Shown here one piece after another: positions 19,001 to 54,300 of a stretch of DNA of 64,000 nt. Location of the stretch: the NCBI RefSeq assembly GCF_036373705.1, contig NC_089854.1, positions 25,185,225 through 25,249,224 of the forward strand, in the 5' to 3' direction. The DNA comes from Amia ocellicauda. Its lineage: Eukaryota > Chordata > Actinopteri > Amiiformes > Amiidae. Within the stretch, counting starts at the first letter, position 1. Every line of letters begins with the position of its first letter. The notes under the pieces are model-generated. The model ran no database searches. It had not been told where the DNA came from and saw only the letters and a list, made by a program, of their open reading frames with translations. The position numbers were made by a program, and so were the translations under genes.

Positions 19001-19373
19001 TCTGTCAAGAGCCTGTAAAGAGCTGCGAAAAGATAGTTTCAGCCCGTTTGCTTCTTTGAGAATGTTTTTTTTTTTGGGGGGGGGGGGGGGGGCAGCCTTA
19101 TGTCTGACATTTGATGTCCACCGTCAATCCGTGAATGAAAAATCTATGTTCACTCACCTTAAGTCTTGCACTTGCCTTGATCAGGTGGAGGTGATCGGAG
19201 GGGCAGATAAATACCACGCTGTGTGCAGAGCCTGCTATGGCGTGTTGCAGATGCAGGGGAAGGAGAATGGTGTGCCCCAGCTGAGGAGGGAGGAGACCCC
19301 TCCCCACACTCTGCCTGGGAAACCGCTGGACCCCAGAGTGCCCCGGAAGCTGCTCGGGACACTCCAGCTCTAA
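16034..19373 (+). CDS. TK1: Thymidine kinase 1, cytosolic
   Basis: TK1 phosphorylates thymidine to dTMP in the cytosol (nucleotide salvage). There are seven coding exons: 16034-16099, 16491-16522, 16970-17083, 17448-17541, 17872-17961, 18565-18684, 19185-19373. All phases join to 234 residues, the same length as human TK1. The sequence shows the P-loop GPMFSGKST (26-34), the GIDEGQFF segment with the catalytic glutamate near 99, the lasso region around [10 protein letters not shown], and two zinc-binding cysteine pairs (CMEC, CRAC). Two regulatory features are kept: Ser13 in SPRK, matching the mitotic CDK site, and a KEN motif at 198-200, matching the APC/C-Cdh1 degron that removes TK1 at mitotic exit. 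It is the only plus-strand gene assigned in the window. Confidence 0.97.
17101..17180. repeat. Short palindromic MITE-like hairpin in TK1 intron 3
   Basis: ACAGCTCTGGAAAAAATTAA...TTAATTTTTTCCAGAGATGT is an almost perfect inverted repeat with arms of about 30 bases and a loop of about 20. A TA dinucleotide precedes it. It resembles short Tc1/mariner-derived MITEs common in fish introns; I could not identify a TA on the right side with certainty because a GT repeat follows. Confidence 0.65.
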
Positions 19374-32003: not shown

Positions 32004-34393
32004 CTGGTATTCCTGCTGTTCTTTGCTGTCCTTGGAAGATAGACAGGCTCTGTTATTGACCCCTGACCCACAGTGACATGGCTAACAAGGTTCATAGGCA
32101 GCTACAACTGTGGGCTGCACTCCTCACCACTGTTACAAATCAGTGTGCCAGTAAACTCAGTGGTGTATTTTGGCATATACATGCAGCATGCGGACACCAG
32201 AACCAACAAGAGGAGGTAGCAGCCGAACACCAGAGCAATACTTCATTGACGAGAATTCTGAAGAGAGAATGGGGCCTACCTACTTAAAGCCTAATGTCCT
32301 TACCTATTTCCAGCCTGAAATGCTCACTAAACACCTCACTCTTTGCCCCATTGTCTGCTCTGCAGTGAAAATCCCCCATGTGTTGATTCAGAGCGATTTG
32401 CACAGTGAAGGTACTGTTCAGTGCCTCTGTACTTTTGTTCTGGAGGCTTCTGTTAAACTTGACAAGGATGAAGGTGACCGGTGGAGTTCCTCTGACTGAC
32501 TTGCATAGTATATGGGCTTGGTAAATCAAGTTTTCTTTAGTGACTGTATATGAGATGTTCGGTTTAGACACTCGCACTGTAAGAGAGACAATTAATTGAA
32601 TAAAGCACAAAAGGCTGGTGGCACACAGAAACAAAACTGTCAGAAAGTTGTAACAAAGGCTAGCTGCACTTTACCTTTGATCGTGACTGTGACTGTGTTG
32701 CTCGCAGTGTTATATTTGTTTGTTTCATTAACCTGGTTTCTTGCTACACAATAGTAGTCCCCTGATTGGTTGGTCTTGACATGATCAATTAGCAACCTGT
32801 TCCTGATAAACTTGTGCAAAACTGGTTGCATATTGAAGAACCAATCATAAGAGAGGTGGGTGCCATTCACTACTTCACAGTGAAGGGTGAGCTGGTCTCC
32901 CTCAAAGAGAACAAGTGCGTCATTTTTAGCATCAGTCGCAATATATGTTCCAACAGGAGGTACTGCAAGAGATCAAGCACATAGTCAGACATACTTCAAG
33001 CAACTGATCTATTCAACATTATTCCTTTAGTCTTCTCCAGTAGCTGGAGCTGCTCAATTGTGTATTTGGATTCTAATTTGAAATTAAAGACATGAATAGA
33101 TCTAAGCTCTGACTGAACTTACCTATTACTTTAAACTGAATGCTGTTGCTTAACTGAGGTCTGATGGTGTTACTGTCTTCCACCTTGGCTTCACAGCTGT
33201 AGTTTCCATTGGAGCGCCTCGTAACTGGGAGGGTGAACCGAGCGGGTTCATTGTTTACTGATTTTTGGATGCCGACCTGTTCCTCTCTGTTTCCTCTCCA
33301 TAGGACATACACAATGGTTTCTGGTATTGCAGGTGCCACACACTGAAAGTATGTGTTTATTCCCAAAAGGGCTGCGTCTGGTCCTGTGAGGGTGGGTTTC
33401 TGTAAGACTGATGCACCTTGAGGAACACGCACAGGAGAGAAGACAGCTCTGCTCAACAGATCACTCAGGACATACAGTAATTTAGCCTGGTCACTGCAGA
33501 CCATAACACTTAAAGAGATATCACATCCACACTGGCAAGAGGTGCTATATGGAAGTCCTTATTAACTACCTGGCTGGTTCAGATTAAAAGGAAAAAGAAT
33601 AACATTTTGTATTTTCTGTGACAGACACTCTCCTGCAACATTGTACCACCTGGATCAGAAAGAAGAATGCAATCTGCTTTAGGAACTTGACCAACTTGTA
33701 AAATAAAAAAATAAATAAACATGACAACAGTACTTACTATTAACGATGTCACAATTCAAACCTGTAACTGAAAAAACAAGGTATATGGGTCAAAATAGGA
33801 ATTTTGCATGTATGCATGTTTAAGCATATATTTGAAATAAAAAAACAATCACAATTGTAATGGAAAATAAGCTAATTAAACACAGACATTGCTTTTCAAG
33901 ATTTAATGTTGTTGTTTTTATTTTACTCCGAGCTTTTGACATATTGCTGCATATCAGGAAATATTTGATGAAACATTGAGGTAAGTATCATTACATTATC
34001 CATATACAGTACAGTATTCTTAGACAAACACACAAAAAGCCTTTACTGTACAATTGCTTAATAAAAGCTGTGGAAAGATGTTCCAAAAACAAATCTTGCA
34101 ATAACAGAAATTCTTGTATACATTAATCCTCAGTAGTTTAGAAAAGGTTACATTACATTTAGGTTTTTACAACTTATAGAGCGATACATAATTTCAATTC
34201 TGAGAGGAGCAGAATAATACACAATGTTCACATTAGCAGGTTCAATGTCAATGGAGTTAGTCACTTAAGGAAAATACAAAAACTGCAGCCCAATATCTGC
34301 ATGGCTATGCATTGTCACCTTGGGTGCTTTTCCCCAAATTAAACGAATGTCTCACTTACTGAAAATCAGCAAAGCAAACCCATGAAGCTTCAT
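32004..34393 (-). pseudogene. Ig gene A: truncated Fc-receptor-like/PECAM-like copy, possibly secreted
   Basis: Exons shared with gene B are signal exon 1 (34393-34360, MKLHGFALLIF), signal mini-exon (33767-33738), Ig1 (33416-33123), Ig2 (32962-32675) and Ig3 (32576-32304). The membrane-proximal Ig exon of B is missing. The membrane exon survives only as a remnant (about 32,257-32,165) that is two bases short against B and has lost its GT donor. The first tail exon (32030-32004) is one base short, and the other two tail exons are absent. If the intron after Ig3 is retained, the frame adds GKDIRL and stops at 32,284, giving a 312-residue protein with a signal peptide, three Ig domains and no membrane anchor. 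Whether this is expressed is unknown; the membrane form is clearly broken. Confidence 0.8.
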
Positions 34394-34888
34394 CTTCACC
34401 CCTCTCTCCTCTGTTGTTTTCACACTTGAGGAAAGATTATGCACTTCAGCTACTAATAGGAAGAGAAAGTTGTGCTTGGCTGTTGGAAAGACACCCCCCC
34501 AACGACCCACCCATGGACAGTGGGAGCGCAATGTGAACACTGATATCATTTGTCTTCATCTGCAGTGCAGAGATAGTGAGTCCCTGTCTGTCCCTCACAG
34601 TTCACAGCCTAATGTGTAAGAGCTGAATACAGAGATAGCACTGGTTAGGCACTGCAGAATATAATACAAGGTATGGACTAAGGTGTGGAGATTAACCTAT
34701 AGCATCACAAATATTGGGAGATGATGGGTGACACAATTTAAAATAACTGGTCTAGACTGTGCAGCTATACAGGCAAAAACAACAACTAATTTAGTACTGG
34801 GCTGATGCTCATTTTCTTTGTCATGCTTTATTATGTGTGTGTGTTTAGAATAAACTATCAATGACATGATGATAAGTAGTGGTGATAT
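32324..34888 (-). repeat. Near-identical tract shared with 39,427-41,991 (gene conversion)
   Basis: Every position is offset by exactly 7,103 bases from its partner, and I found only two differences (32,559 T against 39,662 C, and 32,663 G against 39,766 A). Just outside both edges the two copies still align but differ at many positions. Confidence 0.9.
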
Positions 34889-35389
34889 GCAGTCATGCAA
34901 CAAGCTGAACTATGTTTTGTCCTGTTTCTCTGGCAGTAAAGAAAATACAGTTGCCGTACACAGACTGTGCACTGGACTGTGGCATCAGTGTGGTTGTACA
35001 CAGAAAGGATCTTCACCTGCTACTGATTTTGAACCCTTGATATTAATAGAGATGTGAGCATGACTTGCTGTGCTGTTCATTGATGTTCCCACCTTTCTTT
35101 GCAGTCAGTAGCACACTTTAGACACCATTCTGTCCCATTTCCAACATGGCAGAAAGAACTCAGACAGGAAAAATGTTCTGACCTTTTAGAAATACTGCCT
35201 TACCTTCTTGCCTGTTCCTATAGACCCTGAGACCAGAGTCCAGAGGAATGTAGCCACTGCGCTTTTGTCTCCATAACATCTACAAGTGTTGACTTGGGAT
35301 GAGGTCGTTTAATTCCTTGTATCTTAACTACTGTTTTCATTTCATTTATGAATTATACACACCTGAATCTTATTAACTTCTCACTCTCA

Positions 35390-35985
35390 CCCTTCCTCTC
35401 CTGCAGGATACATCCTCCAGCAAACAAACTCAGATTCCTTCTTATTAAATTCATATTTTAATCAGTGAAGTGGACAAATGACATAAAGCAATCCAAGGCA
35501 TCATTTAAAAAAGGACAACATATTGTTTTAGGAATAGCTAGTTTTAATGTTTAAATGCACACCAGGAATCAATTCATATGTATTTGTAATTCAAAAATTA
35601 CAAACAAACAAAAACATACAGGGAAGTAAGGATTAAAGATTTCGATTAATTTGCACTGTCAGCTCTACCAGTGAATGAAGAACAAGTTCTCTGATGAAGG
35701 TATGTGGTCCATAAGGAAGCCACATGGAGTACAGAATTCTGGGGAAAGCAGAGGTAGAGGAGGAAGTGATGCTGATGGACAGCAGGAGGGCAGACAAACC
35801 CAAAGCAGGATCTCAGCAGGACAGTAGAGGGCACGGTGACCCAGGGAGCAGCGTCACAGGAATGCATCTCCAGCAACCTCTCTCTACCACAATTATTTAA
35901 ATTCAACATTCCTGAAAAACTGAGATCCACCCCTGGTACCACCAACCCGTCCAGCCTGCCTGGTCTCTCTTAATCAATCCTGTTG
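35390..35985 (-). pseudogene. Orphan 3' end of a gene C copy at the duplication boundary
   Basis: This matches the sequence left of gene C at 42,200-42,850, including CAGGATACATCCTCCAGC and GACCAGGC...GGTAGAGAGAG in gene sense. No Ig or membrane exons accompany it, so it is a leftover of the duplicated segment that was cut within gene C's downstream region. Confidence 0.65.
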
Positions 35986-36072
35986 GCTGTGGATGCCTTA
36001 ATATGTTTTTTTGGTTGTGGTTTCAGATGAGGGGGTGCTGTGATCGGTCAGTTGTTAAAGAAGTTGGACTTA

Positions 36073-36160
36073 CAATCAATCAATCAATCAATCTTTATTT
36101 GTATAGCGCCCTTCGCAGGGTAGCCACAGAGCACTTTACATACAGCAAAATAAAAAACAT
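36073..36160. mobile_element. Short interspersed repeat with CAATCAATCAATC and TTTATTTGTATAGCGCC
   Basis: A (AATC)n stretch is followed by TTTATTTGTATAGCGCCCTT and CAGAGCACTTTACATACA. This block is a widespread 3' tail of fish SINE/LINE retroposons. The full element and its exact family cannot be told from this fragment. It is present only in duplication unit 2. Confidence 0.6.
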
Positions 36161-37343
36161 AAATACAATAAAATCAAATATAGACCTGTAAACATTTTAC
36201 ATGACTTACAATCCAACTTACTTACTTCAAACATTTTCTGAGATAGGGCCACTACAACCGACAAGTTCAGACCGGAAAATCTTGAAGTTGAAGCTTGAGT
36301 CTTTACTGGAAACAGAGTCCTAGATACAAGCTGTCTACAAGCACCTTCCAGGCAGCTATCATTAGAGCTCTATTTCTTACAGAGACCATAATGCAGGGTG
36401 CAGTCTCTCAGCAGACACAGCCACTGCAGGTCTGGTTATTCTCTAAGAACCTTGTTTTGCAGTTAGTTAATTATCAACCTCATTTGTTTTTGGAGACGGT
36501 TTTTGGTCCTTCTATTCAGCTTATAGACATTTATGACTTTAATTTTCATCTTCTCAATTTCCACATCAAACAAACTGAGATAGTAATTATTTCCAAATTT
36601 GTAATACCGTATCTTAAGTTCTACACAGTGTAACTTGGAAATGCAAGACATGTCATTTAAAATACAAAGAAACATAGGAAAGGAAAATAATAATATTGTT
36701 TTGTTGCTGCTGGAAGGCAGAAAACATCCTGAAGTGTATCAATTAGTCGTTAAGAGATGACAGAGATTCAGACATCCTTGCCTGGGGATGGCAAAGGGAT
36801 GGACCGCAAAAATTATGTTATACAACTACGAGAATAGAAATCTGGGGAATGCAGAGACAGAGCAGGAAGTTGTGTTGATGAACAGGTATGGGCTGGGGAA
36901 ACCCACAACAAGATCTAAGCATGAAAGTAGAGAGCACTGTGTCACAGGGAGTACCATCTCTCTGATGTCTTCCTCCTCCATCCTCTTACTCAGCCCCAAT
37001 GACTGAAATTCCCACAGCATCCGTGAAATCATGAGAACCATCTGTGGTACCAAGAGCCAATCCAGTTGAAGTCCATAAAACCAGGTCTAAATCCCTTGTG
37101 CTCTGACTGACTGAAAAATGTCCATCTCTTGTGCCCTACTCACCTGGATTCCCCCACCGAAGAGGTGATCTGGAGAGCATTAAGGATAGTATCTTTTGTA
37201 AAACATTGCAAGAATAATATTGCTTTTAAATTAATAGGAGTGTTGTCTGCTTGGGTACAAAAGCAGTGTTGATCTGAGGCCTTTCCTTCTGTCTGAGATT
37301 TGGCTCAAGATGAGTTCTCCCACAATTCAGTCTTTTGACAGTG

Positions 37344-40300
37344 TCACATTTTGGTTGCTTCTCTCATTTCTGAGTAAGTTATAGAATCTTCTTCAAGCTA
37401 CAAGAGAGAAAATTCTTGCATGACAGTGCATGAACACATGCATTGAAATGTTGTTTACACTGTGTTTTGGGCAATGCTGACCCCTATGGGGAAGGCAGGG
37501 CTTCACAAGTACAATGTGGGAGAGGAGACATTTACCTGGGTCTCAGACACTGACTTCATCTTTGGCTCCTCCGGCTCCTTACTGCTGAGAAAAATACACT
37601 AATCAAATGCTAGATCTGACGCTACCACTGAAATTTCACACAGCAGGTTGACTTCTCTTCTTGACATTTCCACATATTTTAATCGTGCCGAGTCAGGAAC
37701 AACAAGGGAAAGGGGGTGGGGAAGGCATGTGACAGGAACAGCAGATGTTGCTGTTCATTTATTGACTATTCGAGATGTTGTGCAAAATTGATTCTTACCT
37801 TATACTATTAAAATAGGCATATCTGTTAATATGCACAAAACACACATCGCTTCTCAGTGAAATATGAACTGCTGTCATTTACACATCACACTGTGGTATC
37901 ATCCCATGTAAGGCTGAGACTCAGGCGCAGTATTTACTTGCTGTGCTGTTGCAGCTTGTGTTGAACACTAGATGTCTCTAGAAGACTCACCTGCTATTCC
38001 TGCTGTTCCTTGCTGTCCCTGGAAGATAGACATGCTTTGTTATTGACCCCTGACCCACAGTGATATGGTTAACAAGGTTCATAGACAGCTACAACTAAAG
38101 GCTGCACTCCTCAGCACTCTTAAAGGTCAGTGTGCCAGTAAACTCAGTGATGTCCTGTTTTGACCACCCTGTTTTCTATCAGTTATTTAGCTGAATTGCT
38201 CAATTGTTTTAACTAACTGTATTTTAAGACATATAAATGGAAAACATTTACTACTAATATGTTAAATGTCTTGTAGGGGACTTTGAGAAACCTTTATGAA
38301 AGGAGATATATATCATGGCGATATCATTTTCTTCCCTGGCAGTGGAAAACTGCATCTTAAACCTGTTTACATGCATTTTCTGTGGAAATGTATAATATAC
38401 TGTAACATCCTAACATCTTACAGACCCCCACCAGTGCGAGGTGAGTAATGGATGAACTTACTGTATCTTGACATGTAGATGCAGCATGCAGCCAACAGAA
38501 GCAACAGGAGGAAGTAGCAGCAGAACACCAGAGCAATGACTTCAGTGAAGAAAAATTCTGCAGAAAGAACGGGGCAACAGCTATGAGAGAGAAGCACGGA
38601 TCCAATCATGGGAACACCAGAAAGACTGTGAAGAGGACAGGAATAAGGACAGTGTTGTGGAAAATACGCACCATAGTGGCACTATTAGTGCTTTAGCTCT
38701 GGGATTTAGATAGAACTGCTGGAATGCATTAACTCAAGTTACAGTTTATCAACACACAAGATAAGCTACACCTTCCCTCTTTCTAGCTCCCACTGCGTCT
38801 CACTCCTTAATATTCAAAGCATGAATAAACAACAGGGCACCTTTCATTTTGACAACCTGCGGTTGGCTTCTTATCCGGTGAGTGTCGTCGAAGCTGTCGC
38901 GGGCCTCGCAGTGATAGGAGCCTGTGTTTTGTGGGTTGATATGGGACAGCACGAGGGTTCGGCCCTTCTCCATGGTTGAGTGAAAATCGCCCTTCTCCTC
39001 CAATTGCGATTCATTTAAAAACCAGAAGTACCGGGGGAAGGACCCTCTCTCCACGGAGCAGGTGAGTATTATCCCCAGCACCCTGAAGCTTTCATGCAAG
39101 AAGTGCTCAGTCTGCAGTGTCACGGGACCCCCCACTGGAACTGAAGGGATAGAAACAGTGGATATGCACACAGTCACAAAGCAAAGAGTTTTTAAGTGCT
39201 GAAGAACTCAAAGTAATCCATTATTTTATTAATGTTTAAACAGATTGTAGACTTATACACAGGATAATGCATTTGGTGGAGGTTGAACTAATAATGTGGT
39301 AATTGTGGAGAACGTTCTGTATTTTTAATGTCCCACAAAGAGAGTTTGTTTATTGAATGAGTATTAACATGCAACAATAGAAAAAAGCTTTATATTTCTT
39401 CCTTACCTACTTCCATCATTAAAGGTTCACTAAACACCTCACTCTTTGCCCCATTGTCTGCTCTGCAGTGAAAATCCCCCATGTGTTGATTCAGAGCGAT
39501 TTGCACAGTGAAGGTACTGTTCAGTGCCTCTGTACTTTTGTTCTGGAGGCTTCTGTTAAACTTGACAAGGATGAAGGTGACCGGTGGAGTTCCTCTGACT
39601 GACTTGCATAGTATATGGGCTTGGTAAATCAAGTTTTCTTTAGTGACTGTATATGAGATGTCCGGTTTAGACACTCGCACTGTAAGAGAGACAATTAATT
39701 GAATAAAGCACAAAAGGCTGGTGGCACACAGAAACAAAACTGTCAGAAAGTTGTAACAAAGGCTAACTGCACTTTACCTTTGATCGTGACTGTGACTGTG
39801 TTGCTCGCAGTGTTATATTTGTTTGTTTCATTAACCTGGTTTCTTGCTACACAATAGTAGTCCCCTGATTGGTTGGTCTTGACATGATCAATTAGCAACC
39901 TGTTCCTGATAAACTTGTGCAAAACTGGTTGCATATTGAAGAACCAATCATAAGAGAGGTGGGTGCCATTCACTACTTCACAGTGAAGGGTGAGCTGGTC
40001 TCCCTCAAAGAGAACAAGTGCGTCATTTTTAGCATCAGTCGCAATATATGTTCCAACAGGAGGTACTGCAAGAGATCAAGCACATAGTCAGACATACTTC
40101 AAGCAACTGATCTATTCAACATTATTCCTTTAGTCTTCTCCAGTAGCTGGAGCTGCTCAATTGTGTATTTGGATTCTAATTTGAAATTAAAGACATGAAT
40201 AGATCTAAGCTCTGACTGAACTTACCTATTACTTTAAACTGAATGCTGTTGCTTAACTGAGGTCTGATGGTGTTACTGTCTTCCACCTTGGCTTCACAGC

Positions 40301-41496
40301 TGTAGTTTCCATTGGAGCGCCTCGTAACTGGGAGGGTGAACCGAGCGGGTTCATTGTTTACTGATTTTTGGATGCCGACCTGTTCCTCTCTGTTTCCTCT
40401 CCATAGGACATACACAATGGTTTCTGGTATTGCAGGTGCCACACACTGAAAGTATGTGTTTATTCCCAAAAGGGCTGCGTCTGGTCCTGTGAGGGTGGGT
40501 TTCTGTAAGACTGATGCACCTTGAGGAACACGCACAGGAGAGAAGACAGCTCTGCTCAACAGATCACTCAGGACATACAGTAATTTAGCCTGGTCACTGC
40601 AGACCATAACACTTAAAGAGATATCACATCCACACTGGCAAGAGGTGCTATATGGAAGTCCTTATTAACTACCTGGCTGGTTCAGATTAAAAGGAAAAAG
40701 AATAACATTTTGTATTTTCTGTGACAGACACTCTCCTGCAACATTGTACCACCTGGATCAGAAAGAAGAATGCAATCTGCTTTAGGAACTTGACCAACTT
40801 GTAAAATAAAAAAATAAATAAACATGACAACAGTACTTACTATTAACGATGTCACAATTCAAACCTGTAACTGAAAAAACAAGGTATATGGGTCAAAATA
40901 GGAATTTTGCATGTATGCATGTTTAAGCATATATTTGAAATAAAAAAACAATCACAATTGTAATGGAAAATAAGCTAATTAAACACAGACATTGCTTTTC
41001 AAGATTTAATGTTGTTGTTTTTATTTTACTCCGAGCTTTTGACATATTGCTGCATATCAGGAAATATTTGATGAAACATTGAGGTAAGTATCATTACATT
41101 ATCCATATACAGTACAGTATTCTTAGACAAACACACAAAAAGCCTTTACTGTACAATTGCTTAATAAAAGCTGTGGAAAGATGTTCCAAAAACAAATCTT
41201 GCAATAACAGAAATTCTTGTATACATTAATCCTCAGTAGTTTAGAAAAGGTTACATTACATTTAGGTTTTTACAACTTATAGAGCGATACATAATTTCAA
41301 TTCTGAGAGGAGCAGAATAATACACAATGTTCACATTAGCAGGTTCAATGTCAATGGAGTTAGTCACTTAAGGAAAATACAAAAACTGCAGCCCAATATC
41401 TGCATGGCTATGCATTGTCACCTTGGGTGCTTTTCCCCAAATTAAACGAATGTCTCACTTACTGAAAATCAGCAAAGCAAACCCATGAAGCTTCAT
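37344..41496 (-). CDS. Ig gene B: four-Ig-domain Fc-receptor-like/PECAM-like receptor
   Basis: Ten exons in gene order: 41496-41463 and 40870-40841 (split signal peptide), 40519-40226 (Ig1), 40065-39778 (Ig2), 39679-39407 (Ig3), 39140-38841 (Ig4), 38557-38462 (membrane), 38018-37991, 37584-37536 and 37397-37344 (tail). All phases agree, giving 481 residues. The Ig exons are all phase 1-1, and a tiny second signal exon is present, as in the FCR/FCRL family. Each Ig domain shows its cysteine pair, for example FQCVAPAIP...GNYSCEA and LTCSVERGS...GSYHCEA. The membrane exon encodes EVIALVFCCYFLLLLLLAACC. The tail ends LEEDSITYSEMREATKM; ITYSEM fits an ITIM-like site apart from its final Met and resembles the PECAM1 tail (TVYSEVRKA). 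The ligand is unknown, and the exact orthologue cannot be named. Confidence 0.88.
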
Positions 41497-42999
41497 CTTC
41501 ACCCCTCTCTCCTCTGTTGTTTTCACACTTGAGGAAAGATTATGCACTTCAGCTACTAATAGGAAGAGAAAGTTGTGCTTGGCTGTTGGAAAGACACCCC
41601 CCCAACGACCCACCCATGGACAGTGGGAGCGCAATGTGAACACTGATATCATTTGTCTTCATCTGCAGTGCAGAGATAGTGAGTCCCTGTCTGTCCCTCA
41701 CAGTTCACAGCCTAATGTGTAAGAGCTGAATACAGAGATAGCACTGGTTAGGCACTGCAGAATATAATACAAGGTATGGACTAAGGTGTGGAGATTAACC
41801 TATAGCATCACAAATATTGGGAGATGATGGGTGACACAATTTAAAATAACTGGTCTAGACTGTGCAGCTATACAGGCAAAAACAACAACTAATTTAGTAC
41901 TGGGCTGATGCTCATTTTCTTTGTCATGCTTTATTATGTGTGTGTGTTTAGAATAAACTATCAATGACATGATGATAAGTAGTGGTGATATAGTTGTGCA
42001 TCAAGTTGAACATTCCCTTTCCAACATGGCAATGAGAACTCAGACAGGAAAACTGCCCTTTTAGAAATATTACCCTACCTTCTTGCCAATGCTTTGCCCA
42101 TGCAGGACAGGCTATGTTCCTATAGGCCCTGAGACCAGAGTCCAGAGGAATTTAGCAAAAACATAAAGGGTAGCGCTGTGCATTAAAACTCTTGAATCTT
42201 ATTAACCTCTCACACTCACCCTTCTTCTCCTGCAGGATACATCCTCCAGCAAACAAACTCAGAATCCTTCTTATTAAATTCATATTTTAATACATTTAAT
42301 CAGTGAATTGGGCCAATGACACAAAGCATTCCAGGGCATTTTATTTGTTTATTTTTTTAAAATAACTAGCATTAATGTTCAAATGTACATCAGGAATCAA
42401 CACAAACAAAAAAATACAGGGATGGGAGGGATGAAAGATTTTGAAATGGAACTAAAATCATCAGAAACAGTCCAAGCCAGTAAAGGTGCAAAGAGACACA
42501 TTCATTTGCACTGTCAGCTTGATCTGTGGCTCTACCAGCGAATGAAGAACAAGTTCTTTGATGAAGGTATGTGGACTATAAGGAAGCCACATAGACTGAC
42601 ACAGAATTATAGGGAAATCAGAGGAGGAGCAGGAAGTGATGTTGATGGACAGCAGGAGGGTAGACAATCCCAAAGCAGGATCTCAGCAGGACAGTAGAGG
42701 GCACGGTGACACAGGGAGCAGCATCATAGGAGTATATCTCCAGCAACCTCTCTCTCTACCACAAAGACTGAAATTCAGCATTCCCGAAAACCCAGAGATT
42801 CACCCTTCGTAACAGGAGCCAGTCCAGAGCCTGGTCTAAGTTTTTCTGAATCAATCCCTCTGCATGTCCATAAATGTATTTATGAGATTTGGAGCATTTG
42901 TGTCAAATGTACATTAATTAACAGCAGTGTTGTTCATAAGAATAGGGATACTGTGTGTTGGGGCACAAAGCCAGCAAGGACTAAGATCCTCCCATGTTG

Positions 43000-45900
43000 T
43001 CACAGTTTGGTCATTTCCTTTGGTTTCCCAACATCCATGTACATTTCAGGCTCTTCTTCGAGCTACAGGGGAGGACAAAACAACAACACAAACATGAAAA
43101 AAGTTACAGTCATTCTCAAAACCCAAAACAGGGATCTTTTTAACTAAATTAAGTGTTTTGTTGTTGTTCTTTAACAGTATCTTGTTTGTGTGTAAAATTA
43201 TCCAGCATCCAATTTATCTTTAAGATAATCTATATCTGAGTTGGAAATATTTCAATATATTGTAATGAAAGACCAAAGAGCTGTCAAGCCCATTCTCAAA
43301 CAGCTGTTCCCAATAGCCTTAACTGGGTGGTACACGCTTGGAAAGAGTTGGTTAATGCTGCATGGTATAACCACTGACCAGCTCCTGTGGCTCATTGTTC
43401 AGCTCTATCTCCTCTGTCTTCTTACTGCTGGGAAAAAGAGACTAATCAGACACACAAACTATGAAGTCATCCCTACTGAATTTCCAGCCCTGGAAACTTC
43501 ATAAATGAACATGAGATTGACTATTTATTAAAGTTACATTTTAAGTTGAGTCAAGAAGCAGAAAAGCAGAGGGCTGGCAGATATAAGGAATGCCATTGAT
43601 AACTGTTTGGTTGTGTGATTGATTGATCGACAGTTTTAATACTTCTAATCTCATACTGCTTTTAATTGGACAATAAAAAGAGTTAAACAATGTGCTGAGA
43701 ATTCACACACACATTTCAGTCTCTTCATCTTTCTGAATATGGGACTGGGTTGGTAACATACAATGAAAGTTTTAATTTTTAATTACATTTTTTATAGAAC
43801 ATGTATCAAAACTTAAATAGATTTTTTTGTTACATTCTGAAAAGAAAACATTCCTGATAACTGATAGTGACACAATCTGAAATCACCTGAATCCTTGTGT
43901 GAGTGTGGGCACTTACAAATATGTCAGTACTCATTGAGATAGGAACTGTGGTCATTCAATCATAATAAGTGTCACATTGCACATTGTTTTATCGTCATGT
44001 GTAACACAGAGACCCTGACAGTCTTCAACTGCTCTGGGCCTGACTGAAATGTTACCAATGTCTCACTCTGCTCCGCTGTGTAGCCTGCTCTACACACTAG
44101 ACGTGTCTTACTCACCAGGTCTGCCTGTCATTCTGTGATCTCCCTGGAAGACAGAAAAGCTCTGTTGCTGACCTCTGACCCACAGTGACAAGACTCACAC
44201 AGCGATAACAACCCAACGGTGAGCAGGTGCCACATGGTTCGGTTCTAGTTCTCATGTTAATTAACACAGTTGTGACACTCTGCTGTAGGGCAGAATTAAA
44301 CCACCCCCTCCTTCACCCATGTCTCTAATTAAACCTTGCCCTGACCCCAGGCACAATCCCCAAATGAGGAAACACTCAAATCTGAAACCATCTGCAACTA
44401 CAGCCATTTTAGCCAACTAAGCTGTAGCTTTTCCCCAACTGGTGTTGAAGTTTACTACGGATACTTAGACTCAGGTGCCCCTTGTTCCAACACATCTTAA
44501 CAGGCTTTCAAGACAGTAAGGTGGGGAATGGATAAACTCACTGTATAGAAACCCCCAGATACAGCATCCAGTCAGCAACAACGTCAGGAAGAGGTAGCAG
44601 ACAAACACTAAAGCAATCACTTCAATGGAAATGTAGTTAAATTCTGTAAAGAGAATGGAATGATGTCTGTCAAAGAGAAAGTCAACACAGACCATAAAAG
44701 CACCACAGAGTGAATTAAAGGATGTTCAAATATAATGCCATATAAAACTGGTGGATTTCTGTAGTGCATTGCTACACAAATGAGATCAGTGCCATGGCAT
44801 TCAAATATATCAATATACAATTGCATAAACAAAACAACATACATACATACATATATACATAAAACAAATATAAACTTGTATTAACAGTAAGACCTCTTTC
44901 TCTCTCTCGTTCTCTTACTTTCACTCCTTACATTTAAACTATAAAGAAAAGTAAAGATTATGGGGTACCTTTCATGTCAATAAAATAAGGTGAAGCCTTT
45001 ATTGTGTTTGTGTCGTTAAAACTGTCGCTGACCTCGCAATGATAGAAGCCCGTGTTCTTTGGGTGAATAGAGGACAGGACGAGACATCTGCCTTGCTCCT
45101 GTAATTGGGAGCCATTTAAATACCAGGAATACCTGGGGTGGGATCCTCTCTCCACAGAGCAGTTGAGTATTATCCTTTCAATAATCCAATGTTCATTATG
45201 TATCTTTTGAGACTCCAGTGTAATTTGACCCTGCACTGGAACTGAAGGTGAGAACAAAAGAAAAGAAGATACAAAATGCTTTATACATTTAAATAACAGA
45301 ATTCAGGAACCCAGAATGATCCATGATTTTGTGATTGTATAAATAGGGCTTACTTTAACACACTATCATCATAGGACAATTTACACTGTGGAAGGTTTAT
45401 TCATTATGTATTATGACAGCTGTGGAAAACATTAATAACTTTTTTACCAACCCCCCTAAATGTTCAATACTGCGCAGAAAGTGCTTTACCTCTGACTGTG
45501 ACCTGGATAGGGAGGCTTGAGTTGCTAAACTGAAGTGTTCCGTTCATGTGATTTTTTGCCAAACAGAAGTAGCTCCCAGATTGATGGCTGTTGACCTGTT
45601 CAATAATCATCATGTTATTGATGAACCTGTGAGCTGTGGAGTTCACAATTGGTTGTGAATTGAAGAACCACTCATAAGAGAGATGGGTGCCTTTCACGAC
45701 GTTACAACGCAGGGTCAGCTTTTCATTTTCAAAGAGGACAGCGAATTGAGGGTCAGACACAAGACTCACTCCTTCCTGCACTGCAAAACAGCAACCAACA
45801 CGGGCAGGCACTTTAAAACAAGCAGTACAGCAAACATGTATATATCCAGCATATTTAGTATTAACATGGTATTCATTGATTAATTTTGCTTGCTGCTGCT

Positions 45901-47078
45901 GAAACTGAAATGCAGGTATTGGATATAATCTCTCCTTATTAACAGAAAGAGAAGTGCTCTGTCAGTACCCATGAACAGATCAGTGCTTTAACTTACCTGA
46001 CTCGAAATTTTAGCCTGTTGCTATACTGTGGACTGGAGGTGGTGCTGTTTGCCACCTTAGCTTCACAGAGGAATTCTCCATCAGAGCGGGCATTGACCAC
46101 ATGGCTGATTATAGTAGATTCATTGTTCAGAGAACTGTAATCCCCCATATTTTTACTGTCTTTCCATAGAGTATAATCAATGTTTTCTGGAATCGCAGGT
46201 GCATTACAATTAAATTCTATTATGTCATTCACATAGGCAGCCTCTGGGCCCCTGAGGATGGGTTTCTGTAAACCTGATGGAATTAAGAGAGTTCTGCCCC
46301 ACATGCAGCTAGACACTACATCACATTGCTGAGATGTAACAATGGAGGTTTTTTTCATGAGGTAGTAAACAAGGCTAATCAGCAAACAGTTTTTTAGTTT
46401 AGTTTTTTTGAAGGAAATTTGACTTTTTTTTATGTCATTATAACAGACCAGACCTGGCCATCGGTGTGATTGATAACCATGAGAATTTCAAATAGAATGT
46501 ACTTACAACATTTGGTGCAGAGATTAGCCCAAACTGAAAAACAACATCAAAAACACATTACAAGTGCACACAACATGTGAAATGAAGCTGAAGTTTCATT
46601 GTGTGATTCTCCAGAAGCTCTTCTATAACCCAGCTGCTTGTATCTGTGCACCTCCTACAGAGAACCCCATTTGGGAAACACACTAACAAAATGTATGTAT
46701 TATGTTTAGTAACTGTTAAATAAATTTCACATAAGAACAAAAGAAAATATATAGATATATATTTGTAGAAAAACTAAATCTAGAAAGGAAATTAAATAAT
46801 TAAATGTAGATTATTTAAAACAGCACATTTGGTAATATTTACAATCAAATATACTATTAAATGCAAATATATGTGGGAAATTATGAGACAAAAAAAGTGA
46901 TTGCATGTAACCTAAATGTATGTTAATTAAGTTATCCTAATTTTATGAAAGATTACATACATTTTTAAGTTCGTAATGTTGATAAATTAATCTTGGATAT
47001 ATACTAAAAACAATAAAAGTAATACACATACACTTAAACTGCTTACAAAACCTATGGAATATTCTAAAGGTGCTCCAA

Positions 47079-47127
<49 letters not shown>

Positions 47128-47427
47128 AAAAAATGTATAATTCTTTGTGTAAAATATTCCTGAGTATTGTAAGAGTATACAGTTGCTTTACATTTTTAGA
47201 CTAATTCTCCATCATAGAGGTGTTTGTAATAATCAATTATTTAATTGGAGAGAAACAGAATATAACACGATTTACAAACGTCCACCTTTTCTGATAAAGC
47301 GACAGTGGAGGCGATCAGAAAACTAAAAAAAGAAAATGGAAAGTTTAGCTTTCTCTATGGCACACATTGATATCTTTCTTAAATCTCACTCACTGAAAAT
47401 CAGCACAGAAACCCTCACACTCTTCAT
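43000..47427 (-). CDS. Ig gene C: related receptor with a frame conflict
   Basis: The exons in gene order are 47427-47394 (MKSVRVSVLIF), 46533-46507 (signal mini-exon WANLCTKC), 46273-45997 (Ig1), 45780-45490 (Ig2), 45241-44969 (matches B's Ig4), 44643-44542 (membrane, YISIEVIALVFVCYLFL), 44143-44116, 43427-43379 and 43062-43000 (tail, stop TGA). There is no counterpart of B's Ig3. The tail ends with the tyrosine motif PEMYMDVGKPKEM. Ig1 ends in phase 2 (GTC AG|GTAAGT), whereas Ig2 must be entered in phase 1; B is phase 1 at both. Against B, two bases are missing just before the donor. Joining Ig1 to Ig2 therefore breaks the frame, but skipping Ig1 gives an open 288-residue protein. The gene is either defective, alternatively spliced or affected by a sequence error. 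Confidence 0.75.
47080..47127. repeat. (TA)n microsatellite
   Basis: A pure AT dinucleotide run of about 45 bases lies in the first intron of Ig gene C. Confidence 0.9.
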
Positions 47428-48328: not shown

Positions 48329-51300
48329 TCAGTGGCACGACTCAGGGGGGGATGTATTGCTCTCCACCCCCATCTCCACACTGACCCCTCTGCTCAGACC
48401 GGGCTGTAACTCCAAGGGGTCAATATGGTCCTTCCATGGAACATCCGCCCTGCTCATTGCTGAGGTATGTCCCTTCTGGTTCTTTCTCTTTTTTTTGTCC
48501 ACAGCAGAGAGGTTTTTCACCAGGTATCTCTTATCGAAACTTTCCTGATGAAAAGAAGAAGGAAGAAAGAAGAAGTGCTCAGTGGTTTCAGTGGTTACGC
48601 TCTCAGAGAGACGGCATGCAAGGGCGATCTCAAACACTCACCAGCACAAGTCTGTCCTTCAGTCTCTCCATGGTTTTACGGTTCGCTGTGGCCAAAGATA
48701 TGTAGGACGTCAGGAGAATACTGTGGAAAGGAATATGGTCACTGACGCCAGCACACAGAGACTGTCATACCTACTGTGTTTCAATTTACATGTTTACATT
48801 TTCACCATTAAGGATTACTTTATGTACACTTGGACATTTGAAGTTACATTTTACCCCTGGGGAATTAGTCATTATAGAAGGCATCCCTTGTTAATAAGAG
48901 AATCAAAAGCCTTCTTACTAGAAAAATAAATGCATGTCTTACCAGTAAGAGAATAGTGACCATCAACAGCAACTGTTTAAATCTGCACATATTTAACTAA
49001 TTGAAGACTGGGGAGCTTTATAATTTACTGCAACCATTCCATGGGCAAGACATACGTACATCTCTGTCAACAGCAAGGGGATAGCAAAGGCCTCAGACAT
49101 GAGGTAGAAAAGGACATTTTTGGCAATTGTGGGTAGGCTGTTCAGACACGTGGCTACCACATTGAGGACTTGGAGACTGCCTTGGAATGGCCCACAGACA
49201 TCGGAGGGTTGGAACCTGAAAGAGATACTACCATCATAAAGGAGAAACTTGGAGGCATATAAACATGCAGGGCCTTTCAGAGCCAACTAGTTATTAGCAC
49301 TGTTTGGTTATGATATTTTGAATACATAAAAACATTGCAAGACAAGAGATATGAGCTGCACTAGCCCCCTTTTTACAGAATATTGATTAAAATCAATGGG
49401 TGGTCTAACCTTGTAACAGAATTTGTATGGGTAAAATAATGTTGGGCGCCAGGTGAGCATTTTAATCCCACCAAATGAAATAAAAGACCATACAAAAACC
49501 AGTTACGTAGAACCCTGTAGCAAAACAATGTTTCTACTCACAGAACCCCCCGTGAAACCCTTTACACCCACATTATTTGGTATTCACTAGCTTAAGATAG
49601 GACAATACACTGTAAAGGTCGAATTTATATTTAAACATATCACAACTTTAGGAATGTGCACTTAATCATATTACAAATAACACACAAACATATGTACTAT
49701 CTATTTCTTACATCTCATAACAGCTCTAGAAATGTGCAAAGTTGCAAAATCACAAGCTAACAAACATATGCAAGCATTAAATAGAATATTTCTTTTAGCA
49801 TAACAATTCTAGAATTATGTGCAAATAGGCAACATTTCAAAGAGGACACCATGTGCAGATATGCAAAATACCTAGAGACAATCACATAACCACTCTAGAC
49901 ATGGGCAAATATGCAAATCACAAGCAAACATACATATGCAGGCATTGATTAGAACGTTTCAGTTAACATAGCAATGCTAGAATTGTGCAAATTAGCAAAC
50001 CTTCATAGGAGACACTAATGTCAGGGCAACCTAATACAGATATAAGAAAGCATATATGTACCCACCACAACACAAATAACTGCAACATACTAATATACCC
50101 ATATGCATCCACCACTCATTGATTGATATTCCAGTTATCCCGTGAACAAAACAAAATCTTTCCCACAGCTGTTTTCTAAGATCCTTATGTCCCACAATAC
50201 TTCTCCACAGTTCTCCTTGAATCAATTCATAATGTCGATGTTATAGTCTTACAGCTGAGACCGCCGTAGAGATGAACAAAAGAGATTCGTCAATTCCACT
50301 ACCCTATCATTGATATCCCAACAATACCGCAGACAACCAAACCAACCAAGTCCCAACCGTCTCCTGCCTTCAGTATCCAAAGCAATCACAAACATTCAAC
50401 ACAAAACGGCAAAGCGAAGGCTTCGTTTCAAACCATGATCGACATCTGCTCCGGTCCAAAACTTGAGTGAGCCACAGCGCCCAGCTTTCCCCACAAATGC
50501 CAGTGCTGTCTGCCTTCCCAGTCTGCAGCACGCACTCCACACAGTAGGAAAATAAACAGCCAACCAAAGAAAGAACCAAAACTCTCCAGGTTCCAAGTCC
50601 TCTTCCCTTTAAGCTTGGTACTTGAACGCTAGAAAACAAAATCTCCACCCACTAAACCAACTTAAATTATCTTCTTTCTTCACTCCCTAACACTTCTCTC
50701 TTTCCCTCTTCTTCACATCTTAACAACATCATCATCATTCGGGGATGCGTCTGATCTCTAACTCGTGCGACCTTCCTCAGTAGGACCCAGCCATTTTAAA
50801 GGCCATTAAACATAACACGACCAATCAAATGCCGTTAAAGAAATACAATACGGCACAACCTTTTCTGAATCAGTCTGGGTTAATGACAGCCCACAAGGCT
50901 AGAGCTTTGCAAGTTGTTCTTTCTATTGAGAAAGGCCTCCTATACATATACCCTGACAAACACAGGATTTCCACACATCGCCCCAACAGAGTTACAGACA
51001 GAGTTACCTATTGCAGGGAAACAGAAGTCTCAAACTAAGACTACTGCAAACACTAAAGAAATCCTGGGTTTACAGCTCAAATATGTAGATCTCACCAGTC
51101 TTCAAGGCCATCTCTGCTCCTATTCACTATACTAGGATGTTGTTGTTTTTTAATACAGAGACCTGTTTCATGTTATTACAGCCATGACACAGTGGATGAC
51201 CTAAATTATGACCCCTTCATCTGAAACTGCCACTGGTCAGCTGGAATTACACACAGACAGAAGAGGGACACCACCTGCCTGTGGAAGTGGATGGCCAAGG

Positions 51301-54300
51301 TAGTCAAAGACATCAGGAGACCCAACAGCAGCATGAAGTGGAACAACACGGAGGAACTGGATGGCCGAAACATCCGCCTGGCTGGCTCACATGTACTGAA
51401 GAGATAAAACTGAGGGGAGGAGAGGGGAGGGACAGTTTTGAAATATAGCATGTAAGTTTACCCTGGGCACTACAGGCCCACACTCACCTACTGAACACCA
51501 GACTTCAGGCCCACTGGGGAAAATATAAGCCTGTTACTGTATATTGACAGATATACAGGAAAAACAGGTGTTTGGAATTTATAAGAGGGGATCACTCAAT
51601 TCTGTAGGAAGTGGGAAAAGGGCTGAGGTAGGGGGTGCTGCATTGCTATGGAAAACGACTTGCCTTTTTGAGGTAAAACATGATGATCAGCTTGAGAACG
51701 AGGAGAAGGGGCATCAGGGGAGTGTAGAACAGTCCTACCCAGGTGACAGTCTGATTGTACACAATGTCCAGTACGTTCAGCGGGATGAGGAACTGCGGCT
51801 TCCCAATCTTCTGCACCAGGCGCCACGAGCACTTTTCCACCAAGTACCTACCAAGATGCATCCGACCAGCATTACATTTCAGCACAGCAGGCCTCTATCA
51901 GGCATATATCTTAATGTTTGAAATAAGTATCTACCAGTTCATGGACACCATCAGGTTGTCAAGTTAGACAAGATGTTTGTTCAATTATCATTTAAGACGG
52001 CAGTGGAGGTAACTTTGTCCTCATCATGGCATGCCCCAGTTTGACAAGAGGAGGTGTGGCCTCCTTCTGCCAAAGATTGCAGCTCCACAAAATGTTTACT
52101 ATTCAACTGAGGAAACTGCAGACAAAGTCCACTTAATCTATCCAGACAACTCTGTCGAAAATGTTTTCAGCCACTGTTGATGTTTTTTTTTTTTATAAAT
52201 ATGAAGACATTTTCTATTTCTTCAGTGTAGTTTCATCCATTACCAGGATTACAACAGATCACAACATTTAACAAAATAAGTTGCCTACTTTCTTGTGTAT
52301 CCAGTGAGGAAAGTGTGCCCAATGCAAGCCAGAAAGTCAAACATCATCAGCTTGTACATCTCCTGGCCAAATACATTTTCCCAGCACTGAAATGTACAAA
52401 ACAGGAACCAAATATTTTTTGAATTAAAAAAACAGACAGGTATCAGAAAGACATGCATTTTCTAAAATATGTTGCCATGCAACGAGTGTGTACACTCTGT
52501 ATACTGGAATACCTCTATGCAGACACTCATCCTCCAAACAGTGGTTCATATTCTACATAAGTGGTTCTGAAACTGGGCAAGAGAGTCGTAGAGGGTCAGA
52601 GTTCACTTCACATCCTAGGCTTTTATATTCTCACAGATGTGATAGAGTTGTAATTATGAAAATAATGTGAGCAGAACCATTAGTTTTAATACACTTTTTG
52701 AATTACAGAGCTGATTGTTTTTTTTGTTTTTTTTTACCCTTTCACATTTGCTACATTGCTTGGATTTTCCTATGCATAGAATCTGCTGACAGAGAAAGAA
52801 CAGGAACATCCCAAGACTGGCTAGCTTCAGGAAGATGCTCCTGTGGGGAAAAAAGAAAAAAATGAACTTCAGGCCACAACACTAAACTGTTTTTGTACTG
52901 TTCATCTTTAAGCTTAGAGCTGAGGGAAGCTGGGAAAGACCCTGCAGTAACAGGAAGAGCTAAAAAACAAACAATCCCAGAGGACTTGAAAGTGGAGGAA
53001 TAATTCAAGCGATTGTGGTTCAGGACAGGAAAGGTGTTTGAGAATCAGAGAGAGCTGGTATAGTGGTAAGGTGACAGTGATTGACAGCTGGTGAAGGTAG
53101 CTGGAAAGTCGGTGAGAGGGTGGGTCATTGTGGAAGGGTGCCTAAGCTGACAGAGGTCCTCACCTCACCAAGGTGATGTTGACCTGGACAGTGAGGGAAT
53201 ACTCCTCAAACTTGGCGATACCGCGGAACATGTGCGGCAGCAGGAAGTTGACGAGGGTGATGGTGATCGATGGGAGGTACTGCAACACGAGGTTGAAGAT
53301 CCAGCTTTTATCTTCCTAAAAGCAACAGAGGAGGCAGGTCACTGTTTGTCCACCACTGTGTTGGACGTTTGTGGAGAATAATTACAGTAACATCACCCTG
53401 TGCAGACAAAAGACTAAGATCCGAAGAATTAATTTCCCATTGGAGACTAAAATTAATTCACTTGAACTGGGCATCTTTCAATCGACATACCAGGGCAGTG
53501 TACCTGCGCTGACTGAGTGAACAACAGCACACACTCTACGAAGCCATTGATATTTAAGTTTGAAGACAACAACAAAACAGACTTCTTATAATTGTATGTG
53601 TTCTGTGCAAACTGATATGATCACCTGGGGTTTCTGGGAGACCTTGGTGGCAAAGTAAATGAAGGTGAATGCTCCAGAGAGCAGGATCAGGACGACCAAG
53701 TTCAGGACGACACGAACAACATAGATCAGAGCCCACTGCTTTACTGTCCGACGAGACACTTGCTGAAGAAATTTCTCCTCCTCCAGATCCACCTACAGAG
53801 AGATAGAGGGAGCGGAGGCAGGAGAGAGAGGAAGAGAGAGAGAGAAAAGTACTTGACTGTGAAAGCCTTCTGCTTTCATACATCACTGCCAACACAACAT
53901 CAAAATGATTCTATGAAGAGGACCGGCATTCAAATGAATGGACTGAAAGTTGAGAGCTGTTTTGTTCCTCCAGAGCTAAGACACAGTGGCACAGTTGACA
54001 CTAGGACAGCAGCCCCTTCCACACTCACTTTCAGGTCATTTAAGAAGCTGCTCTGTTTGAGCGAGGCGGAGCTGGCATCCTGGATGCAGAAGTCCCAGCC
54101 GCAGAACATTTTGTAGCACGTTGTCACCTTGTAACGGTCTGCCAGCATCCATTTCATCTTGTAGCTATTGACCATCCTGTCAAAGGAGTTCAGAGGTACA
54201 CGTACACAGATACAGACACATCCAGAAATGTATGGAACAACAGACAAACCTCATATCTCTCTTCCAGGTCTCTCATATCTCTCTCACATGGTCAAGTTCA

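What the first reader, a model, noticed from the sequence alone, without database searches (positions are those of the whole stretch)
32004..47427. Fc-receptor-like/PECAM-like gene cluster occupies the interleukin-40 (C17orf99) slot
Seen: three minus-strand Ig-domain genes lie between SYNGR2 and TMC8, and the order and relative orientation TMC8-Ig-SYNGR2-TK1-AFMID match human 17q25. Known: in human this slot holds C17orf99/IL-40, a secreted two-Ig-domain B-cell cytokine reported as restricted to mammals. Inference: IL-40 may descend from a receptor gene of this kind that lost its membrane exons. Remembered IL-40 features fit: a CxAPxxP-type start of one domain resembles CVAPAIPETIVYVL in Ig1, and a C-x5-GSPPIT stretch resembles the CKSVRGTPPVT of Ig3. 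The same motifs also occur in PECAM1 and FCRLs, so this is suggestive only.
Basis: partly seen in the sequence, partly recalled or inferred. Interest (0 to 1): 0.88.

Follow-up and report, generated by a model that had tools for sequence, protein, structure and literature searches.

The report
Likely receptor ancestor of cytokine IL-40
In the bowfin, a fish, the chromosome slot that in mammals holds the immune cytokine IL-40 holds a small cluster of receptor-like genes, one of them intact with a predicted four-domain cell-surface product, and IL-40, so far an orphan without known relatives, is likely a cut-down descendant of such a receptor.

Summary
The window is bowfin (Amia): the middle Ig gene encodes the protein NCBI calls Fc receptor-like 3 [Amia ocellicauda]. 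Between a TMC gene and SYNGR2 lie three minus-strand Ig genes. Gene B is intact: split signal peptide, four phase-1 Ig exons, transmembrane exon, short tail. Gene A, almost identical at its 5' end, has lost Ig4 and its transmembrane frame, so a product would be soluble. Gene C has lost Ig3.

The IL-40 link holds up in part. IL-40's second Ig domain matches fish Ig3 better than the PECAM1 or FCRL5 domains tested (profile-profile scores 90 vs 42 and 52; at equal depth means 54.9 vs 42.0 and 45.9, with overlap), and the careful tree groups them (98/97). But 2 of 5 other trees do not and AU tests reject no rival. IL-40's first domain is unresolved. Non-mammalian tetrapods could not be surveyed; that is the missing test.

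The parts
41463..41496 (-). gene B exon 1 (signal peptide, first part)
   Evidence: ATG, donor GTAAGTGA, phase 1
40841..40870 (-). gene B exon 2, 30-bp signal-peptide mini-exon
   Evidence: same splice in NCBI protein P0001
40226..40519 (-). gene B Ig1 (C17orf99-type Ig)
   Evidence: PF17736 26.8 bits, cut-off 26
39778..40065 (-). gene B Ig2
   Evidence: Pfam Ig_3 42.1 bits; no PF17736
39407..39679 (-). gene B Ig3 (C17orf99-type Ig; likely counterpart of IL-40 D2)
   Evidence: PF17736 25.8 bits, just under cut-off 26
38841..39140 (-). gene B Ig4
   Evidence: Pfam Ig_3 35.6 bits
38462..38557 (-). gene B transmembrane exon
   Evidence: predicted helix 462-497 of P0001
37991..38018 (-). gene B cytoplasmic exon 1
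37536..37581 (-). gene B cytoplasmic exon 2
37344..37397 (-). gene B last exon as modelled here, tail LEEDSITYSEMREATKM with one tyrosine; NCBI isoform X3 has another 3' end (ITSSVGESR)
   Evidence: and sequence of P0001
34360..34393 (-). gene A exon 1, identical to B
33738..33767 (-). gene A exon 2, identical to B
33123..33416 (-). gene A Ig1, identical to B
32675..32962 (-). gene A Ig2, identical to B
32304..32576 (-). gene A Ig3, 7 differences to B in 273 bases
32164..32275 (-). gene A relic of TM exon, 83% to B, frame lost, no donor
   Evidence: frame and donor by eye
32297..34910 (.). duplicated block, 99.5% identical to 39400-42011
47394..47427 (-). gene C exon 1
46507..46533 (-). gene C exon 2, 27-bp mini-exon
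45997..46273 (-). gene C Ig1; ends in phase 2 instead of 1
45490..45764 (-). gene C Ig2 as read from a phase-2 acceptor close to the B-like site; the B-like acceptors (45780, 45810) are out of frame
44969..45241 (-). gene C Ig4; no Ig3 exon between Ig2 and Ig4 (the intron is only 248 bases)
44542..44643 (-). gene C transmembrane exon
43000..43062 (-). gene C last exon, tail LEEEPEMYMDVGKPKEMTKL
25154..26312 (-). SYNGR2, flanking gene
18547..19370 (+). TK1, C-terminal exons, flanking gene
   Evidence: Pfam TK for ORF 18547-18816; second exon by eye
48332..51894 (-). TMC gene (TMC8 by position), 3' part
   Evidence: Pfam TMC for ORF 51649-51894; the ORFs nearer the Ig genes by eye

Best explanation
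Gene B encodes a predicted four-Ig transmembrane receptor of a ray-finned-fish family that sits in the IL-40 slot, and mammalian IL-40 is likely the orthologous gene after losing the Ig2 and Ig4 exons. Shown: B has a split signal peptide, four Ig exons bounded by phase-1 introns, one transmembrane exon and a short tail; relatives of the same build occur across ray-finned fishes under unrelated names. Shown: in profile-profile comparison IL-40 D2 scores higher with Ig3 of this gene than with the PECAM1 and FCRL5 domains tested, and 68 of 99 scored IL-40 entries end in a hydrophobic segment where the receptor has its transmembrane exon. Inferred: because the Ig exons begin and end in phase 1, whole exons can drop out without a frameshift, and the bowfin cluster shows such losses (Ig4 and TM in A, Ig3 in C); the same route would turn a four-Ig receptor into two-Ig IL-40 with an anchor, and alternative 3' ends would then give the soluble form. 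Inferred function: B likely binds a cell-surface or soluble ligand through its Ig domains and signals or docks adaptors through the one tail tyrosine (SITYSEM, a YxxM/ITIM-like site by recalled consensus); gene A, if expressed, would be a soluble decoy of B.
For: Gene models. Bowfin identity, and 25 relatives besides one shark hit: (some partial, one a fusion of two). Flanks; IL-40 next to SYNGR2. D2-Ig3: Ig3 profile scores D2 up to 49.6 bits (mean 39.5) against at most 36.5 for FCRL5/PECAM1 domains; hhalign 90 against 52 (FCRL5) and 42 (PECAM1 D5), matched depth means 54.9 (42.7-70.4) against 45.9 (32.2-55.2) and 42.0; 12 of 13 within-protein choices; tree 98/97. Membrane-like end in 68 of 99 scored IL-40 entries, also in xenarthrans and afrotheres; predicted C-terminal helix in armadillo IL-40. 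IL-40 mini-exon of about 11 codons inferred from six models with other 5' ends that rejoin at the same point and three models that skip D1.
Against: D1 has no clear partner: matched-depth hhalign gives Ig3 35.7, PECAM1 D5 35.7, FCRL 31-33, Ig1 28.1. The reverse search is less clear: the D2 profile gives FCRL5 D7 35.5 and D6 33.7 against a fish Ig3 mean of 30.3 (best 46.4), and with 12 IL-40 rows 8 of 13 fish Ig3 domains score above FCRL5 D7 (31.5), 5 below. Two of five quick trees do not group Ig3 with D2; one puts D2 beside Ig1 with support 42. AU tests reject neither an FCRL5 nor a PECAM1 D5 partner. Mean pairwise identities hardly differ (29.6, 28.9 and 28.8%). No sauropsid, amphibian, lungfish, coelacanth, marsupial or monotreme link was found, but the searches are word-based and capped and could miss them. 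The PECAM1 D3-D6 letters used are recalled. The helix at the end of the IL-40 model has low confidence (pLDDT 52-57).
Confidence: 0.67

Rival explanations
1. The bowfin genes are ordinary Fc receptor-like (FCRL) genes that moved to this place, as NCBI's name says, and share only a common Ig type with IL-40.
For: NCBI name FCRL3/FCRL5; FCRL5 is the best PDB sequence match, E 3.4e-43; Ig1 is closest to FCRL5 D4-D8 (hhalign 78); Ig2 and Ig4 group with a shark FCRL domain (98/80); the D2 profile scores FCRL5 D7 above the mean fish Ig3.
Against: D2 with FCRL5 D4-D8 is a group in none of the six trees; the identified neighbours are not those of the SLAM-linked FCRL group described in PMC2413239 (passages); names of the fish relatives are inconsistent (hemicentin-2, brother of CDO, CEACAM5-like, PECAM).
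Confidence: 0.14
2. Both the fish genes and IL-40 are separate offshoots of a PECAM1-like gene, and their shared slot is chance or repeated insertion.
For: PECAM1 D5 lies next to Ig3+D2 in the careful tree and ties with Ig3 as D1's best match at matched depth; AU p 0.31 for D2+PECAM1 D5.
Against: Same place beside SYNGR2 in fish and mammals (the TMC8 side of the mammalian slot is recalled); PECAM1 D5 scores lower than Ig3 against D2 at full and matched depth.
Confidence: 0.1
3. Genes A and C are decaying copies and only B works; the reduced copies are no model for IL-40.
For: A has lost Ig4 and the TM frame; C breaks phase at the end of Ig1.
Against: Reading frames of A (exons 1-5) and of the separate exons of C are open; B is intact and has relatives across ray-finned fishes, so the IL-40 comparison itself does not depend on A or C.
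Confidence: 0.4

Closest known systems
IL-40 / C17orf99 (placental mammals)
   Same: Neighbour of SYNGR2; PF17736-type Ig domains; D2 best paired with Ig3; inferred signal-peptide mini-exon; membrane-like C-terminus in 68 of 99 scored entries.
   Different: IL-40 has two Ig domains, B four; IL-40 is described as secreted and as found only in mammals (PMC8566875, PMC12967690, passages).
Fish proteins named Fc receptor-like 1/3/5, si:dkey-93h22.7 and others
   Same: Same four-Ig + TM build; this is the family B belongs to.
   Different: Bowfin has three copies, two of them reduced.
Human FCRL5
   Same: Best PDB sequence match; D7-D8 also hit PF17736.
   Different: Nine Ig domains and another locus (recalled); D4-D8 group with IL-40 D2 in none of six trees.
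PECAM1
   Same: D5 is of the same Ig type; tail motif resembles TVYSEV (recalled).
   Different: Six Ig domains, ITIM plus ITSM, another locus (all recalled).

Membership tests
IL-40 (C17orf99) | lies between TMC8 and SYNGR2, same direction as both | tested here: met
   TMC(-), Ig(-), SYNGR2(-) in the window; mammalian side: for SYNGR2, TMC8 recalled
IL-40 (C17orf99) | Ig domains matching Pfam PF17736 | tested here: met
   gene B whole protein 49.1 bits, two stretches (Ig1 26.8, Ig3 25.8 alone, cut-off 26); not exclusive
IL-40 (C17orf99) | two Ig domains only, no receptor build | tested here: not met
   B has four Ig exons, TM and tail
IL-40 (C17orf99) | domain D2 groups with Ig3 to the exclusion of FCRL and PECAM1 | tested here: inconclusive
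   careful tree 98/97; 3 of 5 quick trees; AU rejects no rival
IL-40 (C17orf99) | domain D1 groups with Ig1 | tested here: inconclusive
   56/91 in the careful tree; not a group in the four quick trees that hold D1
FCRL | locus linked to CD2/SLAM genes | tested here: not met
   neighbours identified in this 64-kb window are TMC, SYNGR2, TK1, apyrase; no wider search for SLAM genes was possible; criterion from PMC2413239 passages
FCRL | signal peptide split by a 21-bp second exon (recalled) | tested here: inconclusive
   30 bp in A and B, 27 bp in C
FCRL | sequence closest to FCRL domains | tested here: inconclusive
   true for Ig1, not for Ig3
PECAM1 | six Ig domains (recalled) | tested here: not met
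   four in B
PECAM1 | ITIM and ITSM in the tail (recalled) | tested here: not met
   one tail motif, SITYSEM

The most novel reading that the evidence does not exclude
IL-40 is not an orphan cytokine: it is the two-domain remnant of an old bony-vertebrate receptor (Ig1/Ig3 kept, Ig2/Ig4 lost), still made with a membrane anchor in most placental mammals, and secreted IL-40 is the ectodomain of that receptor made by alternative 3' exons; bowfin gene A shows the same receptor-to-soluble change happening again in the same slot.
Probability: 0.45. Interest if true: 0.86.

Novelty: new variant of a known kind. Interest (0 to 1): 0.74.

Why it matters
The papers seen describe IL-40 as an orphan cytokine, found only in mammals and with no receptor identified (PMC8566875, PMC12967690; passages). 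An origin from a four-Ig receptor would give it a family, non-mammalian relatives to study and a reason to look for receptor-type ligands. The membrane-like C-terminus in many species' models would also offer one testable reason why assays of human IL-40 disagree (PMC12967690, which itself only speculates about different structural or modified forms): soluble and anchored forms.

Tried and rejected
Pfam PF17736 as proof of IL-40 kinship: rejected, it also hits FCRL5 D7-D8 (59.8 bits) and fish PECAM1 (41.5 bits). Fold comparison: not discriminating; the bowfin model matches generic Ig chains (Robo1, contactin, titin, Sidekick), the IL-40 model matches FNIII pairs and PECAM-1 D1-D2 at low TM-scores. 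The idea that 'VVPPGG' after IL-40 D2 is a remnant of the 'VVPVGG' start of Ig4: dropped, because IL-40 isoforms diverge right after 'PPG', so it seems to lie inside the D2 exon. The idea that A and B are an assembly artefact: unlikely, since their 3' parts differ by 9-17%. Gene C as a plain pseudogene: left open, since an acceptor at 45764 keeps the frame. NCBIfam: no hit for P0001 or P0064. Literature: C17orf99 (43 papers, 30 listed), at least two of IL-40, FCRL and PECAM (24, 20 listed), IL-40 with evolution terms (925, 15 listed), bowfin with Fc receptor-like (0), TMC8+SYNGR2+Fc receptor (0), interleukin-40+fish+homolog (3), FCRL/PECAM1/teleost terms (6): nothing in these listings and in the passages read links IL-40 to a fish receptor; only a few of the papers were opened, and the founding IL-40 paper is not held.
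Full report
What the window is. The spliced product of the middle Ig gene aligns at 100% (rounded) over 97% of its length with P0001, 'Fc receptor-like protein 3 isoform X3 [Amia ocellicauda]'. The window is bowfin DNA. P0001 differs by one extra serine in the tail and by its end (ITSSVGESR instead of LEEDSITYSEMREATKM), so the gene likely has alternative last exons.

Genes. Gene B (41496-37344, minus) has ten coding exons and a 480-residue product: a signal peptide split over a 34-bp and a 30-bp exon, four Ig exons each entered and left in phase 1, a transmembrane exon and three tail exons. AlphaFold2 gives four all-strand domains and one long helix (mean pLDDT 80). Gene A (34393-32304) is part of a 2614-bp block 99.5% identical to B; exons 1-4 do not differ at all and Ig3 differs at 7 of 273 bases. 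Behind Ig3 it has no Ig4, and its TM exon relic is out of frame and lacks a donor (by eye). Read through, the frame stops after LEIGKDIRL. A product would be soluble. The regions further 3' differ by 9-17%, so the copies are separate. Gene C (47427-43000) has Ig1, Ig2, Ig4, TM and tail; Ig3 is gone, as the Ig2-Ig4 intron is only 248 bp. Its Ig1 exon ends in phase 2, while the B-like acceptors need phase 1; an acceptor at 45764 would keep the frame. Whether A and C work is open.

Flanks. SYNGR2 (minus), TK1 (plus), an apyrase gene, CANT1 by recall (minus), and a TMC gene (minus). AFMID was not confirmed. On the mammalian side, human C17orf99-SYNGR2 read-through transcripts (PMC7544212, passages) and a camel model that fuses IL-40 D2 to SYNGR2 (P0143) show that IL-40 sits upstream of SYNGR2 in the same direction; the TMC8 side is recalled.

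Relatives. One search scored 7996 candidates and listed 27 proteins at E of 1e-5 or better: P0001 itself, 25 from ray-finned fishes or unnamed sources (some partial, one a fusion of two) and one shark FCRL; 24 of the 27 carry PF17736. One search, with gar P0004, listed 17 of 2770 candidates at E up to 1: the query, 13 from ray-finned fishes (one a PECAM1) and three weak chimaera hits. Their names are inconsistent: FCRL1/3/5, PECAM, hemicentin-2, brother of CDO, CEACAM5-like, perlecan. PMC4016189 (passages) counts four zebrafish 'FcRL5L' genes on chromosomes 3 and 7; whether these are the same genes was not tested. with human IL-40 gave 122 hits (120 listed); every listed hit with a species name is a placental mammal. 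These searches need shared five-letter words, so absence from them is weak evidence.

IL-40 comparison. Pfam's C17orf99 domain hits Ig1 and Ig3 of B, not Ig2 or Ig4, but also FCRL5 and PECAM1. Group HMMs (21 fish rows per domain; 54 D1 and 44 D2 non-redundant rows from 87 and 80 cut by motif out of 120 entries): the Ig3 profile's best outside match is IL-40 D2 (mean 39.5, best 49.6), ahead of FCRL5 D7 36.5 and PECAM1 D5 30.4; in reverse the D2 profile gives FCRL5 D7 35.5 and D6 33.7, fish Ig3 mean 30.3 and best 46.4. hhalign D2 against Ig3: 90; Ig1 57; FCRL5 52; PECAM1 D5 42; with two-sequence profiles Ig3 mean 54.9 (42.7-70.4, 12 pairs), FCRL5 45.9 (32.2-55.2, 10 pairs), PECAM1 D5 42.0 (one pair). 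Asked which domain of each fish protein D2 prefers, 12 of the 13 proteins with an Ig3 answer Ig3, one Ig1, none Ig2 or Ig4; 8 of the 13 Ig3 domains score above the best FCRL5 domain. For D1 the 14 proteins split 10 Ig3 to 4 Ig1. Tree of 102 domains on 96 columns (12 of the 36 IL-40s with both domains): Ig3+D2 98/97; Ig1+D1 56/91. Against: AU p 0.26 for D2+FCRL5, 0.31 for D2+PECAM1 D5 and 0.29 for D1+D2; of five quick trees three keep Ig3+D2 (93, 73, 70) and two, both with global alignments, do not. In the one of these examined, D2 sits beside Ig1 (support 42) inside a group of Ig1, Ig3, D1, D2 and PECAM1 D5 without FCRL (84). D2 with FCRL5 D4-D8 is a group in none of the six. So the D2-Ig3 link is likely, the D1 link open; the shared slot carries much of the weight.

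Membrane end of IL-40. Of 120 listed IL-40 entries (isoforms included) 99 had a scoreable tail; 68 hold a 19-residue window of Kyte-Doolittle mean 1.6 or more behind D2, one of them the camel SYNGR2 fusion, where SYNGR2 may give the peak (21 not scored). The common form is [EQ]LPxGPxxVLAGSLxSIAAITSGMLGWxxWTRL, seen in armadillo, anteater, tenrec, aardvark, bats and, in other spellings, mouse and carnivores. The human canonical end (P0028) lacks it; human isoform X2 (P0031) has a weaker version (1.42). AlphaFold2 puts a helix at 221-242 of armadillo IL-40 (pLDDT 52-57; the alignment rows were chosen for having this end). Whether it is a transmembrane segment, a GPI signal or neither is untested. 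A script looked for exon joints in IL-40 models: 84 of 120 had no recognisable second signal-peptide stretch; of eight models it listed with other 5' ends I set two aside as misreadings (P0044, P0059); the other six rejoin just before SSFSK-type sequence, and three whale and camelid models run from there straight into PVSQ. An exon of about 11 codons, like the 30-bp and 27-bp exons of bowfin, is inferred.

Mechanism. Phase-1 exons can be dropped singly; the bowfin cluster shows such losses. The proposed path from four-Ig receptor to IL-40 is the loss of Ig2 and Ig4, with the anchor kept in many lineages and bypassed by other 3' ends in some. Function of B is inferred: a predicted type I receptor with one tail motif (SITYSEM in B, EMYMDV in C; some teleost paralogues keep a tyrosine among acidic residues, e.g. 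EYMED in P0012, others have none). Ligand unknown.

Mended on re-reading the calls: number of relatives, the reverse profile result, how far the quick trees were inspected, the pLDDT range of the IL-40 helix, and the counts behind the mini-exon. Confidence was lowered from 0.68 to 0.67 for the reverse profile result, and the odds that A and C are decaying copies were raised from 0.08 to 0.4, since that rival concerns only A and C and nothing tested here speaks for their expression.

Noticed in passing
window 13443-14924: Tc1/Sleeping Beauty-like element: transposase ORF 13794-14657 (Pfam HTH_SB, DDE_3, HTH_Tnp_Tc3_2) between 200-bp inverted repeats, 97.5% identical.
   Followed up: partly
window 55165-56739: Second inverted-repeat pair (about 400 bp, 90%) around a short ORF that by eye looks like a Tc1 transposase fragment.
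   Followed up: no
P0131, P0136, P0137, P0143, P0144, P0147 (pig, pygmy sperm whale, camel, alpaca): In these even-toed ungulates and a whale, the listed IL-40 models lack the first Ig domain or show it degraded, leaving D2 alone; IL-40 may be decaying or reduced to one domain there.
   Followed up: partly
P0003; P0005/P0012; P0009/P0154; P0015/P0025: Two paralogue types seem to lie side by side in teleosts: consecutive locus tags in two Albula species and in Umbra, and a fused Clinocottus model.
   Followed up: no
one search hit list: No marsupial or monotreme IL-40 among the 120 listed hits (worst listed E 2.7e-22); 'mammals only' may mean placentals only, but the search is word-based and could miss diverged ones.
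   Followed up: no
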